Shown here: positions 9,621 to 39,421 of the stretch, piece by piece
How positions within the stretch are numbered: the first letter of the stretch is position 1
How the letters are laid out: the number at the start of each line of letters is the position of its first letter
Assembly (NCBI RefSeq): GCF_011758765.1
Contig: NZ_JAANOU010000001.1
Span: forward strand, 2,294,001-2,358,000
DNA: 64,000 bases
Source of the DNA: Amycolatopsis viridis
GTDB taxonomy: Bacteria; Actinomycetota; Actinomycetes; Mycobacteriales; Pseudonocardiaceae
Direction of reading: 5' to 3'
Position numbers and translations under genes: made by a program
Notes under the pieces: model-generated
Seen by the model: the letters and a program-made list of their open reading frames with translations, nothing else
Databases searched by the model: none
What the model was told of the DNA's origin: nothing

Positions 9621-10082
9621 ATGACATCCACACGGGTCACCGGGTTCGTGCGCGCGCCGCGCGCGGAGGTCTACCGGGCGCTGGTCGACGCCGCCGCCGT
9701 CGCGGTGTGGCGCGTGCCGAACGACATGACGAGCCGGGTGCACTCCTTCGAGGCGCGGGAGGGCGGCCGGTTCCGGATCTCCCTCGTCTACGACGACGCC
9801 GGCCGGGCGGGCAAGTCCGGCGCCCGCACCGACACCTATTCCGGTCGGTTCGCGGTGCTGGAACCCGGTCGGCGGGTCGTGGAGGTCATCGAGTTCGACA
9901 GTCCGGACCCGGCGTCGCGGGGCACGATGACCATGACGACCACCCTGGCCGACGCCGACGGCGGCACCGAGGTCGTGATCGAGCACGACGGCCTGCCGGC
10001 CTCGGTCGCCCCCGCCGACAACGAGACCGGGACCCGCATGGCGCTGGCCAAGCTCGCCGCGTTCGTCGAAAACCGGCCCTGA
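9621..10082 (+). CDS. SRPBCC / AHSA1-family protein
   Basis: 153 residues from ATG 9621, divergent from glnA; the longer upstream frame would run into the glnA promoter region. The START-like fold is seen in TGFVRAPRAEVYRALVDA, the WRVPNDM loop and GRFRISLVYDD strand, and a C-terminal helix ETGTRMALAKLAAFVE. The AHSA1 branch includes Hsp90 activators and many small ligand-binding or polyketide-cyclase-like proteins; the ligand is unknown. Its stop codon lies within the first unit of a 20-bp tandem repeat. Confidence 0.85.
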   Translation: MTSTRVTGFVRAPRAEVYRALVDAAAVAVWRVPNDMTSRVHSFEAREGGRFRISLVYDDAGRAGKSGARTDTYSGRFAVLEPGRRVVEVIEFDSPDPASRGTMTMTTTLADADGGTEVVIEHDGLPASVAPADNETGTRMALAKLAAFVENRP

Positions 10083-10128
10083 CCGGCACCCGCGGGCGCT
10101 GACCGGCACCCGCGGGCGCTGACCGGCA
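10081..10128. repeat. 20-bp direct tandem repeat, 2.4 copies
   Basis: The unit GACCGGCACCCGCGGGCGCT is repeated exactly at 10081 and 10101, with eight bases of a third copy at 10121. The first unit includes the last two bases of the SRPBCC stop. Each unit carries the palindromic CCCGCGGG, so the transcript could form short hairpins. Confidence 0.85.
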
Positions 10129-11524: not shown

Positions 11525-12763
11525 ATGTCAGTGATGGAGATGCTGCGCCGGTACTGCCGCGACCAGATCCCGCCGCCCGGCCCGTTCCGGGTACTGGCCC
11601 TCGGCGGGCTCGTCACCACCGCCGGCGGGGGCGCGTGGTACACGACGTGGGCGGTCTACTTCACGACCGTCGCCGGGCTGTCCGCGCCGCTGGTCGGTGC
11701 CGGCCTGACGGTCGCCGGTGCCGCGGGCCTGCTGGCGGCGACGCCGGTCGGCGCGCTGGCCGACCGGCTTGGCCCCCGGGAACTGCTGATCGCCCTGATC
11801 GCGGTGGACGGCGTGTCGATGGCGGCGTTCGTGTTCGCGCACCACGCCGTCGTGTTCCTGGCGGTGGCGCTGGTCAACACCACCGCCGACCGGGCCATCG
11901 CCGGGGTCCGCACCGCCTACGTCGCCGAGCTGGCCGGTGAGCAGACCCGCGTCGCGCACCTGGCCCGGCAGCGGGTCGCCAGCCACCTCGGCTACACGAT
12001 CGGCGCCGCGGGCGGAGCGGTCTGCCTGACGCTCGGCAGCCCGGCCGCGTTCCACACGCTGATCGTGGTCGACGCCGCGACCTCGCTGGCCTGCGCGGCG
12101 CTGCTCACGCGGGTGCCGGCGGTGCGGCCGGCCGTCCGGGAGCACCGGCCGCGGACCCTGGTCGCCGATCCGGCCTTCCTCGCGGTGGTGGCGTCGACCG
12201 GGCTGCTGTCGCTGTGCTGGGGACTGGTCTCGACCGCGCTGCCGCTGTGGCTGGTGCGCGGCACCCACCTGCCACCCGGTCTCGCCGGGGTCGTGGTGAT
12301 CGTCAACTCGCTCGGCGTGGCCCTCCTGCAGGTCGTCGCGAGCCGTGGCTGCACCGGCGTCCGCGGGGGTGCCGTGCGGGCGGCGTGGTCGGGTGCCGCG
12401 CTGGCCGCGGCGTGCCTGCTGTTCGCCGCCACGAGCGGTGGCAGCGGGGTTCTCGCCGCCGGTCTGGTGCTGCTCGCCGCGGCCGCGCACCTGGCCGGTG
12501 AGCTGTGGTTCATCGCCGCCAAGTGGGCGCTCACGCTCGGTCTCACCCCGCCCGGCGCGACCGGCCGGTACCAGGGGCTCGCCGCCTCCGCCCAGGCCGG
12601 GGCGCAGATGATCAGCCCGGCGCTGATGACCTTGCTCGTCGGTGCCTGGGGGCGGCCCGGCTGGTTCGTCCTCGCCGCCCTGTTCCTGGCCGCCGGCGGG
12701 GCGACGTTCCCGGCGGCGCGGTGGGCCGCGCGCACCCGGCCGCGCCTCACCGCACCCAGCTGA
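11525..12763 (+). CDS. MFS transporter
   Basis: 412 residues with about 12 hydrophobic segments. The cytoplasmic loop after helix 2 reads GALADRLGPRELL, the standard MFS motif A (G-x-L-A-D-x-x-G-x-R). The central loop around residue 195-215 is charged (REHRPRTLVADPAF). The family exports drugs or metabolites by proton exchange; no substrate can be named. Start codon choice is between ATG 11525 (MSVMEML) and 11534. It is divergent from the ArsR regulator, which likely represses it, and is followed by a large inverted repeat array that may end the transcript. Confidence 0.88.
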   Translation: MSVMEMLRRYCRDQIPPPGPFRVLALGGLVTTAGGGAWYTTWAVYFTTVAGLSAPLVGAGLTVAGAAGLLAATPVGALADRLGPRELLIALIAVDGVSMAAFVFAHHAVVFLAVALVNTTADRAIAGVRTAYVAELAGEQTRVAHLARQRVASHLGYTIGAAGGAVCLTLGSPAAFHTLIVVDAATSLACAALLTRVPAVRPAVREHRPRTLVADPAFLAVVASTGLLSLCWGLVSTALPLWLVRGTHLPPGLAGVVVIVNSLGVALLQVVASRGCTGVRGGAVRAAWSGAALAAACLLFAATSGGSGVLAAGLVLLAAAAHLAGELWFIAAKWALTLGLTPPGATGRYQGLAASAQAGAQMISPALMTLLVGAWGRPGWFVLAALFLAAGGATFPAARWAARTRPRLTAPS

Positions 12764-12774
12764 CCGCCCGACCC

Positions 12775-12933
12775 GGCAAACACGCCGCCGGGACGGGCAA
12801 ACACGCCGCCCGAACGGGCAAACACGCCGCCGGGACGGGCAAACACGGGCGTGTTTGCCGCTCCGGGCGGCGTGTTTGCTGCTCGGCGCGCGGTGTTTGC
12901 TGCTCGGCGCGGCGTGTTGGCCGCCGGAGGGCG
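12775..12933. repeat. 21-bp phased repeat array: four forward and four inverted units
   Basis: Units begin at 12775, 12796, 12817 and 12838 (GGCAAACACG core) and then, inverted, at 12850, 12871, 12892 and 12913 (CGTGTTTGCC core), all with a 21-bp step. Unit cores are separated by GC-rich linker such as CCGCCGGGAC. The two halves meet in a palindrome GGCAAACACG-GG-CGTGTTTGCC (12838-12859). The last inverted units are degenerate. The whole could fold into a long hairpin. It lies between the MFS stop and the AurF-like gene. The same repeat recurs at 39296. Confidence 0.92.
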
Positions 12934-13008
12934 CGGCACCGGGTGCGGTCGGCGGGGGCGGTCACGTCGAGCGCCCCGGTGTCCCGGCTTGCGTCCGCGC
13001 CCAGATGT

Positions 13009-13040
13009 GTTACCTTGGGTAACTGTAAATCGAGGTAACA
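13009..13040 (+). promoter_or_regulatory. palindromic operator upstream of the AurF-like gene
   Basis: GTTACC-TTG-GGTAAC (13009-13023) is a perfect six-base inverted repeat; a half-site GGTAAC recurs at 13034-13039. TetR-family regulators often bind such sites. It sits 42 bp before the ATG, in promoter position. The regulator is not encoded next to it. Confidence 0.6.
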
Positions 13041-13064
13041 GGCAGAGGTGTCAGGGAGGGTGCC

Positions 13065-13982
13065 ATGACCAGCGTCGGGACGCACGAGCATGCGGACACC
13101 GGGCAGCCTGACCGCGAATCGGTCGCGCAGCGGTTGCTCGACTCGTCCGAGACGTTGTCCTACGACCCCGTCAAGGAGGTCGACTGGGACACCCCGCTGG
13201 ACACGAGCTACCACGGCGCGAGCCCGGAGTGGAGCACCCTCTACGGGACCGCGTACTGGGCCGAGATGACGCCCGAGCAGCAGCGCGAACTGACCCGGCA
13301 GGAAGCCGCGTCGGTCGCGAGCACCGGCATCTGGTTCGAGATGATCCTGCAGCAGATGGTGCTGCGGGACTTCTACGCCAAGGACCCCACCGCCCCGGCG
13401 TTCCAGTGGGCGCTCACCGAGATCGCCGACGAGTGCCGCCACTCGATCATGTTCGCGCGCGGCGCGGCGAAGCTGCGCGCCCCGGCCTACCGGCCCCGCC
13501 GCCTCGCCGTGGAGCTGGGCCGGGTCTTCAAGTCGACCGCCACCGGCGAGGCCGCCTACGCCGCGATCCTGGTCGCCGAGGAGGTCCTCGACGTCATGCA
13601 GCGCGACTGGATGCGTGACGAGCGGGTGGTGCCGTTCGTGCGCACGATCAACAACATCCACGTGGTCGAGGAGTCGCGGCACATGAAGTTCGCCCGCGAG
13701 GAGACCCGCGAGCGGCTCAAGGGTGCCGGGCCGCTGCGCCGCCAGTACAACGCGCTGGTCGTGTCCATCGCCGCCTACTTCATCGTGAGCAGCATGGTCA
13801 ACCCGAAGGTGTACGCCAACGCGGGCCTGGACACCCGGCGTGCCCTGCGCGAGGCGAAGGCCAACGAGCACCACAAGGCGATGCTGCGCTCCAGCTGTGC
13901 CGGCCTGATGGAGTTCCTGAACTCCGCCGGGCTGCTGACCAGGGCCGCGGCCGTCTTCTACAAGCGCGCGAACCTCCTCTGA
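13065..13982 (+). CDS. AurF-like di-iron oxygenase
   Basis: 305 residues, all-helical ferritin-like. The di-iron ligand pattern of AurF (p-aminobenzoate N-oxygenase) is visible: Glu near 92 in IWFEMIL, E123 and H126 in ADECRHS, E162/E163 in VAEEVLDV, and H189, E193, H196 in NIHVVEESRHMKF, with the same 4 and 3 spacing as in AurF. Such enzymes oxidise amines or other substrates with O2 and need electrons from a reductase; the next gene, six bp downstream, encodes a ferredoxin-reductase fusion that fits. The substrate is unknown. An upstream palindrome suggests control by a TetR-type repressor. Confidence 0.88.
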   Translation: MTSVGTHEHADTGQPDRESVAQRLLDSSETLSYDPVKEVDWDTPLDTSYHGASPEWSTLYGTAYWAEMTPEQQRELTRQEAASVASTGIWFEMILQQMVLRDFYAKDPTAPAFQWALTEIADECRHSIMFARGAAKLRAPAYRPRRLAVELGRVFKSTATGEAAYAAILVAEEVLDVMQRDWMRDERVVPFVRTINNIHVVEESRHMKFAREETRERLKGAGPLRRQYNALVVSIAAYFIVSSMVNPKVYANAGLDTRRALREAKANEHHKAMLRSSCAGLMEFLNSAGLLTRAAAVFYKRANLL

Positions 13983-38892: not shown

Positions 38893-39273
38893 ATGCTGGA
38901 TCACCTGGGAGTTCAAGTGGCCGACGTCGAGGCGTCCGCCGCGCTGTACCAACGTGTGTTCGCGCCGATCGGGCTGACCGAGGCCGTGCGTTTCCCGGTG
39001 GGGGAGGGGGTCGTGGTGGGCATGTCCGGTCCGGACGGGCAGGCCGCCTTCTGGTTCGGCCCCGCCCGCGGCGACGAGACCCGGGAGCTGCACGTCGCCT
39101 TCCGGGCGCCGGACCGGGCGGCGGTGGACGCCGTGCACGCCGCCGCCGTCGAGGCGGGCGTCGAGGTGCTGCACGAACCGCGCGAGTGGCCCGAGTACCA
39201 CCCGGGCTACTACGCGGTGTTCCTCCGCGACCCGGACGGCCACAACGTGGAGGCGGTGCACCACGGCGGATGA
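38893..39273 (+). CDS. VOC family protein
   Basis: 126 residues, single glyoxalase-like unit: LDHLGVQVADVEASAALYQRVFAPIG with metal-ligand His at residue 3, a FWFGPARGDETRELHVAFRAPDR strand pair, and the C-terminal GYYAVFLRDPDGHNVEAVHHG, where Glu is the second metal ligand. It resembles small fosfomycin-resistance/lactoylglutathione-lyase-like proteins; substrate unknown. The second 21-bp repeat array begins 23 bp after its stop. Confidence 0.88.
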   Translation: MLDHLGVQVADVEASAALYQRVFAPIGLTEAVRFPVGEGVVVGMSGPDGQAAFWFGPARGDETRELHVAFRAPDRAAVDAVHAAAVEAGVEVLHEPREWPEYHPGYYAVFLRDPDGHNVEAVHHGG

Positions 39274-39295
39274 GTGACACCTGACCACCCCATGG

Positions 39296-39421
39296 CGTGT
39301 TCGCCACTCCGGCCGCCGTGTTTGCCGCTCGGGTCGGCGTGTTTGCCGCTCGGGTCGGCGTGTTTGCCGCTCGGGTCGGCGTGTTTGCCGCGCCGGCCGC
39401 GGTGTTTGCGCGGCCGGTTGG
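39296..39421. repeat. 21-bp phased repeat array, six direct units
   Basis: Units begin at 39296, 39317, 39338, 39359, 39380 and 39401, an exact 21-bp period. Core CGTGTTTGCCGC is followed by a TCGGGTCGG-type linker; the middle three units are nearly identical, the outer ones degenerate. The core is the same as the inverted-orientation units at 12850-12933. It lies downstream of the VOC gene. All six are in one orientation here. Confidence 0.92.

What the first reader, a model, noticed from the sequence alone, without database searches (positions are those of the whole stretch)
12775..12933. Inverted array of a 21-bp phased GTGTTTGCC repeat
Eight units keep an exact 21-bp step, four forward and four inverted, meeting in a GGCAAACACG-GG-CGTGTTTGCC palindrome. 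Twenty-one base pairs is two turns of B-DNA, so all sites of one arm face the same side, and the arms can form a large cruciform or mRNA hairpin. It is not a known terminator, REP or CRISPR type that I recognise.
Basis: partly seen in the sequence, partly recalled or inferred. Interest (0 to 1): 0.72.

Follow-up and report, generated by a model that had tools for sequence, protein, structure and literature searches.

The report
Phased 21-bp repeat arrays behind genes
The repeat seen in the window is one copy of a genome-wide family of short DNA arrays, stepped at two helix turns, that sit behind genes and favour places between genes pointing at each other in an Amycolatopsis-type bacterium; they look like docking arrays for an unidentified protein, but their function is not shown.

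Summary
The array is real: window 12776-12921, four inverted plus four forward GTGTTKGC cores at exact 21-bp steps. It belongs to a large family: 1.15 Mb of this 5.68-Mb genome (partly chosen around arrays) holds 52 intergenic arrays (one cut in two by a stretch border). GTGTTTGCC occurs 168 times between genes and 0 times in 1.0 Mb of coding sequence. Arrays follow stop codons, favour convergent spacers (27 of 71) and nearly avoid divergent ones (1 of 167). Cores and the 21-bp step are kept while 13-bp spacers drift: orthologous arrays in a close relative differ at 6% of core and 22% of spacer positions (6 of 13 loci). Phase continues across the inversion (29 of 35 junctions 19-22 bp). Arms are not kept complementary outside the cores, so a long hairpin is probably not what is selected. 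High counts of related 21-bp arrays occur in eight genera of the family, but clearly nowhere else in a class sample. No Y1 (REP-type) transposase was found in the genome. Best reading (0.4): phased binding arrays for an unidentified protein insulating transcription-unit ends, BIME-like but not REPs. Rivals: RNA hairpin/terminator; neutral or selfish repeats.

The parts
12764..12847 (-). left arm: four GTGTTTGC cores on the minus strand, 21-bp steps
12838..12859 (.). dyad centre GGCAAACACG-GG-CGTGTTTGCC; core starts 12 bp apart across the inversion
12848..12924 (+). right arm: GTGTTTGC x3 and outermost GTGTTGGC, 21-bp steps
39294..39409 (+). second, one-armed array of six units (outermost GTGTTCGC), between a glyoxalase-family gene (stop at 39273) and a convergent thiolase gene
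11534..12763 (+). MFS transporter gene (PF07690); its stop codon lies 12 bp before the first core
13065..13982 (+). AurF-type gene (PF11583), start 143 bp after the last core

Best explanation
The array is a member of a lineage-specific family of extragenic, helically phased repeat arrays. Shown: each unit is a conserved core (GTGTTBGC here) plus a fast-drifting 13-bp spacer, stepped at 21 bp (two helical turns), usually in two arms that point away from a centre, and placed behind stop codons, with the highest rate between convergent genes. Inferred: the cores are sites of a sequence-specific DNA-binding protein that lines up on one face of the helix; the filled array acts as a boundary at the ends of transcription units (stopping read-through or collisions of converging polymerases, or holding supercoils), as proposed for BIMEs in enterobacteria. 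Array length changes by gain and loss of units. The protein is not identified.
For: Cores and step are what is kept: within arms, core positions (without the variable sixth) differ in 8% of unit pairs and spacers in 33%; between orthologous arrays of G000 and G092, core 15 of 240 and spacer 100 of 458 mismatches, P=2.7e-8, 6 of 13 loci kept. 459 of 471 same-arm spacings are 21 bp; the phase carries across the inversion in 29 of 35 junctions. Placement: convergent 27 of 71, co-directional 23 of 272, divergent 1 of 167 spacers; median 34 bp from the stop side and 146 bp from the start side. In co-directional spacers orientation relative to transcription is even (125 and 128 units), as expected for DNA sites. 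Arms are not kept complementary and candidate stems inside the unit do not co-vary. Array positions are partly shared with G187 (4 of 7 comparable junctions). Arrays read in other genera keep a GTGT start and the 21-bp step with other spacers, both of which the search pattern demanded.
Against: No binding protein is known and no binding data exist. Units were recognised by their core, which inflates core conservation (less so, where units were defined on the G000 side), and an unfiltered G000/G092 count showed no difference (136 of 463 core, 262 of 875 spacer); the filter was set afterwards. In the evenly spaced sample plus window alone the placement trend is not significant (P=0.053 and 0.12). 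G198 also carries a 22-bp form (50 four-unit matches), so 21 bp is not absolute. Seven of 19 genus genomes have no four-unit match at all, so such arrays are dispensable. The window array is absent in the close relative G092. Places behind genes are also where selection against insertions is weakest.
Confidence: 0.4

Rival explanations
1. RNA-level device: the transcribed array folds into a long imperfect hairpin (or a row of short hairpins followed by GUGUUU) that ends transcription in both directions or protects mRNA 3' ends.
For: Window array folds at z -6.3 against 200 shuffles; two-armed arrays median z -5.7 on the + strand, n=33, 25 shuffles each. The terminator scan of 12700-13100 finds 3 sites against 0.4 expected, each a stem with a TGTTTGC tail. 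Placement behind stop codons.
Against: One-armed arrays (16 of 52) have a median + strand z of only -1.0 (n=16, range -3.9 to 3.1); other-strand values scatter from -8.1 to 11.4 but were scored against the + strand shuffles. Spacers of the two arms are less complementary than in permuted arm pairs (0.526 against 0.557, below all 5000 permutations). Candidate unit stems show no covariation. Orientation relative to transcription is even in co-directional spacers. Canonical-looking hairpins stand beside some arrays (L179, L180; seen by eye).
Confidence: 0.25
2. Neutral or selfish repeats: units spread and expand by slippage, recombination or an unknown mobiliser and are tolerated only where they do little harm, behind genes and away from promoters.
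For: Unit number differs between close relatives; strong species-to-species turnover; adjacent units are more alike (0.70) than units of different arrays (0.57); many G187 arrays are flanked by further shared inverted sequence, like copies of a larger element (by eye).
Against: Core more conserved than spacer in the six alignable orthologous arrays; exact 21-bp step and phase across the inversion; the shared minus-then-plus order (32 of 36 two-armed arrays in G000, 21 of 21 in G187) and end-type outer units are not expected from slippage alone; no Y1_Tnp transposase in G000.
Confidence: 0.27
3. A REP/BIME-type element moved by a REP-associated tyrosine transposase.
For: Extragenic, many copies, behind genes, mosaic.
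Against: No sign that the unit is a preserved imperfect palindrome; arms are blocks of one orientation, not alternating; no PF01797 hit in G000 and one partial hit among 19 genus genomes.
Confidence: 0.05

Closest known systems
BIME / REP (PU) elements of enterobacteria
   Same: Extragenic, high copy, behind genes; BIME-2 binds gyrase, BIME-1 IHF, and REPs aid Rho-dependent termination (passages of PMC2817692).
   Different: Unit is 21 bp with no preserved palindrome found; units run head to tail in each arm and flip once; helical phasing; no Y1_Tnp transposase found in the genome.
Minisatellites / VNTR loci (MIRU type; recalled)
   Same: Tandem units with variable copy number between close relatives.
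   Different: One unit family dispersed over some 50 loci in the 20% of the genome read, core conserved with drifting spacer, two inverted arms with continuous phase.
Iteron arrays of plasmid origins (recalled)
   Same: Direct repeats spaced near two helical turns that bind a protein side by side.
   Different: Dispersed over the chromosome behind genes; no link to replication genes was looked for.
Short tandemly repeated repetitive (STRR) sequences of cyanobacteria (recalled)
   Same: Lineage-specific intergenic tandem repeats, many loci.
   Different: Heptamers there; here 21 bp, inverted arms, protein-site-like core.

Membership tests
REP/BIME | extragenic, >100 copies, mostly behind genes | tested here: met
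   168 GTGTTTGCC between genes, 0 in coding; 118 exact pairs genome-wide; context table
REP/BIME | unit is an imperfect palindrome with preserved pairing | tested here: not met
   no covariation of the two candidate stems (paired 0.715 against 0.729 shuffled, 0.680 against 0.694); one-armed arrays median + strand fold z -1.0
REP/BIME | units in alternating orientation | tested here: not met
   32 of 52 arrays minus block then plus block, 16 one-armed, 3 plus-minus, 1 mixed (cut array counted once)
REP/BIME | RAYT (IS200/IS605-like Y1 transposase) in the genome | tested here: not met
   PF01797: 0 in G000, 1 of 19 genus genomes with a partial hit
REP/BIME | binds gyrase, IHF or Pol I | not testable with these tools
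   needs binding assays
Intrinsic terminator | GC-rich stem followed by a U-tract | tested here: inconclusive
   3 terminator-like sites against 0.4 expected, tails only TGTTTGC; A5/T5 runs in 1 of 27 convergent spacers with and 1 of 44 without arrays
MITE / transposon remnant | terminal inverted repeats with target duplication at an empty site | tested here: inconclusive
   G092 lacks the window array, but the junction is too diverged to define a duplication
CRISPR array | near-identical repeats, unique spacers, one orientation | tested here: not met
   spacers share a consensus across arrays and arms are inverted; cas genes not searched
Known structured RNA (Rfam) | match at gathering score | tested here: not met
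   0 matches in the window
Minisatellite/VNTR | tandem copies varying in number between strains or species | tested here: met
   orthologous arrays differ in unit number between G000 and G092

The most novel reading that the evidence does not exclude
Amycolatopsis-type bacteria and other genera of their family mark the ends of transcription units with helically phased docking arrays for an undescribed architectural protein. The protein's site changes from genus to genus (GTGTTTGCC, GTGTCCCAC, GTGTTGCGG, GTGTCGTCC) while the GTGT start and a step of about two helical turns stay, so that array and protein co-evolve as a lineage-specific insulator or topological boundary system.
Probability: 0.27. 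Interest if true: 0.82.

Novelty: new variant of a known kind. Interest (0 to 1): 0.6.

Why it matters
In the stretches read, the most enriched spacer 9-mers are nearly all parts of this unit, so the arrays are a dominant feature of the space behind genes in this genome. If they bind a protein, they offer a genetic handle on how high-GC actinobacteria separate converging transcription units, an open question because U-tract terminators are scarce there (recalled). Their fast change between species would also give a natural record of a DNA-binding protein and its sites changing together. If they bind nothing, they are a striking case of a selfish or neutral repeat holding helical register.

Tried and rejected
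REP/RAYT: rejected for lack of a PF01797 hit in G000, lack of a preserved unit palindrome and block orientation.

Long hairpin as the selected structure: tested by comparing spacers of the two arms with permuted arm pairs; observed 0.526 against 0.557. Rejected as main cause, kept as rival because cores do pair and + strand fold scores are strong.

Sense-RNA signal (for example a Rho-loading site, since the RNA read from both genes of a convergent pair starts with U-free GGCRAACACGCC units): disfavoured because orientation is even in co-directional spacers and a second family in G242 has the opposite arm order.

Coding repeat (21 bp = 7 codons): rejected; 53 of 57 clusters lie in spacers. The 4 that fell in predicted genes (one arm each, three of them with two units) were dropped from later counts.

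First G000/G092 substitution count over the 12 loci aligned gave core 136 of 463 and spacer 262 of 875, no difference. Several of these had no array, or an unalignable one, in G092. With a filter set after seeing this (at least 2 cores in G092, segment at most 900 bp, mismatch at most 0.30) 6 of 13 loci remain and the difference is strong.

Phage link: 73 viral stretches matched the three-core pattern, one match each; assumed to be chance and not followed. Genome-contig scan: 47 stretches, 22 of them Amycolatopsis; the other 25 come from other organisms (19 with one match, 6 with two or three) and were not examined. dnaA lies at 186 kb; a link of array density to it was not tested.

Paper searches: six returned no paper and one three papers unrelated by title and abstract start; the held library misses most subscription journals. 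One search listed the REP/BIME literature.

Full report
WHAT IS THERE. The window array lies between the stop codon of an MFS gene (12763) and an AurF-type gene (13065). It has four minus-strand cores and four plus-strand cores, in exact 21-bp steps within each arm; the eighth core is GTGTTGGC. Shuffles give 0.72 exact cores where 12 are found: 7 in this array and 5 in a second one at 39297-39409.

A GENOME-WIDE FAMILY. The genome (G000, 5,684,261 bases, one contig) holds 118 exact core pairs at 21 bp, with none for the reversed control, and 453 when the sixth core base may be T, C or G. I fetched 55 stretches of it; with the window that is 1,154,238 bases. Twenty stretches were about evenly spaced; the other 35 were chosen around listed arrays, so densities in the whole sample are inflated. 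With a degenerate core 57 clusters were found; 4 fell in predicted genes and were dropped, leaving 53 intergenic entries. Two of these (end of L167, start of L168) are one array cut by my stretch border, so there are 52 arrays, and one 'one-armed' entry is the cut piece. Genes were called with my own GC-frame script, so starts are approximate. GTGTTTGCC occurs 168 times in 136 kb of spacer and 0 times in 1005 kb of coding sequence. In the even sample plus window, 7 of 121 spacers of at least 100 bp show a strong internal period, and all 7 periods are 21; 0 of 172 shuffled spacers (G000 and G218) do. G113 (6 of 68) and G218 (1 of 51) show other periods, none 21.

PLACEMENT. Arrays occur in 27 of 71 convergent, 23 of 272 co-directional and 1 of 167 divergent spacers of at least 60 bp (Fisher P=1.1e-8 for convergent against co-directional, 1.9e-8 for divergent against the rest). 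In the even sample plus window alone the trend is the same but not significant: 3 of 21, 5 of 107, 0 of 65 (P=0.12 and 0.053). Array edges lie a median 34 bp from stop codons (n=79) and 146 bp from start codons (n=25). In co-directional spacers the two orientations are equally frequent (125 and 128 units).

ANATOMY. Of 52 arrays, 32 have a minus block followed by a plus block, 16 have one arm, 3 have plus then minus, 1 is mixed (with the cut array counted once). Same-arm steps are 21 bp in 459 of 471 cases. Minus-plus junctions are 19-22 bp in 29 of 35, and 12-13 bp in 3, among them the window array; binomial P=5e-21 against an even spread over 9-40 bp. In arrays with at least three units per arm, 16 of 56 outermost units are GAGTTGGC or GGGTTGGC, against 0 of 56 innermost. 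The core is strongly conserved, the spacer weakly (consensus GTGTTNGCCGCTCCGGGCGGC).

SELECTION. In a close relative (G092; the protein next to the window array is 99% identical) flanks of 13 of the 50 arrays were matched in the stretches fetched. Counting cores in the matched segments, 8 of the 13 places hold at least two cores there, one holds a single core, and four (the window array among them) hold none. In six alignable arrays, core positions mismatch in 15 of 240 and spacer positions in 100 of 458 (P=2.7e-8). An unfiltered count over 12 loci showed no difference (136 of 463 and 262 of 875), because places without a homologous array were included; the filter was set afterwards. In the more distant G187, 27 arrays were read in 20 stretches chosen around arrays: 17 convergent, 9 co-directional, 1 divergent; 21 two-armed, all minus-plus; 4 of 7 comparable junctions carry an array in both genomes.

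HAIRPIN OR DNA SITE. The window array folds at -124.2 kcal/mol, z -6.3. Two-armed arrays have median + strand z -5.7 (n=33), one-armed -1.0 (n=16) (49 of the 53 entries met the length limits; the other strand was scored against the same shuffles and scatters widely). Yet spacers of the two arms of one array are less alike (0.526) than arms taken from different arrays (0.557, sd 0.0075; below all 5000 permutations), and the two candidate stems inside the unit do not co-vary. A mechanism living on pairing would predict the opposite; avoidance of perfect palindromes would fit. I therefore prefer DNA recognition of the cores, with 21-bp phasing placing all sites on one face. This step is inference.

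BEYOND THIS GENOME. Four genomes of G000's genus contain contigs of the same length as named records (Amycolatopsis acidicola, sp. GM8, alkalitolerans, tucumanensis), so that genus contains Amycolatopsis species; A. arida and A. marina match genomes placed in other genera of the family. That the family is Pseudonocardiaceae is recalled. GTGT four times at 21 bp matches 97 of 297 family genomes. By my reading of the table 26 genomes in 8 genera have 20 or more matches with control counts under 40% of that; G214 was left out because its control is higher. Arrays were read in loci of six genera (g1, g4, g16, g25, g31, g33): of 24 arrays in these loci from genomes other than G000, 22 lie outside predicted genes. 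Units differ: GTGTTGCG (G149, G116), GTGTCCGAC (G003), GTGTCCGCA (G024), GTGTCGTCC (several of g16), GTGTCCCCGG (G198), GTGTCCCAC (G242). In loci of the remaining genera 17 of 21 matches are inside predicted genes. In a class-wide sample of 394 genomes only G000 and G033, both of this family, are clearly rich; G595 and G390 match their controls about equally. A 22-bp control gives 0 in 14 of 16 genomes, 2 in G148 and 50 in G198, so 21 is the rule but not a law.

KNOWN KINDS. REP/BIME elements share place and abundance, and BIMEs bind gyrase and IHF (passages of PMC2817692). The units here show no preserved palindrome, do not alternate, and no Y1 transposase was found. RepRanger (PMC12306157, passages) names three actinomycete genomes in the passage seen and does not mention Amycolatopsis in its main text. 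No Rfam match in the window. Seven paper searches found no report of such arrays, within a partial library.

VERDICT. Observation confirmed, interpretation partly. Likely a lineage-specific, BIME-like array of phased protein sites at transcription-unit ends; the protein and function remain to be shown.

Noticed in passing
L211-L222 (G242): A different 21-bp inverted-array family, unit CGCTTGTGTCCCACCTTCCGG, with the opposite arm order (plus then minus) in the two-armed loci read and GAGT-type units near the centre in some; several lie at or near contig ends.
   Followed up: partly
G198: Both a 21-bp (GTGTCCCCGGTTCAGG...) and a 22-bp (GTGTCCCACGTTCCCGTCGTGC) array family in one genome.
   Followed up: no
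L376-L395 (G187): Many arrays are flanked by a further inverted sequence, GTTGCGTTGCCGGGCGGCG or its complement, suggesting a larger mosaic element (by eye).
   Followed up: no
window 13008-13039: Inverted repeat TGTTACCTTGGGTAAC plus a second GGTAAC upstream of the AurF-type gene, kept with small changes in 7 of 8 loci aligned (the eighth locus is in the other orientation); perhaps a regulator operator.
   Followed up: no
L179 near 10062-10122, L180 near 10147: Separate canonical-looking hairpins (the first with a T-run) directly beside arrays, so arrays and ordinary terminators can coexist (by eye).
   Followed up: no
L223-L235 (G113, G218): Genomes without these arrays show other spacer repeats with periods 16, 18, 24, 25, 29, 33 and 46.
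   Followed up: no
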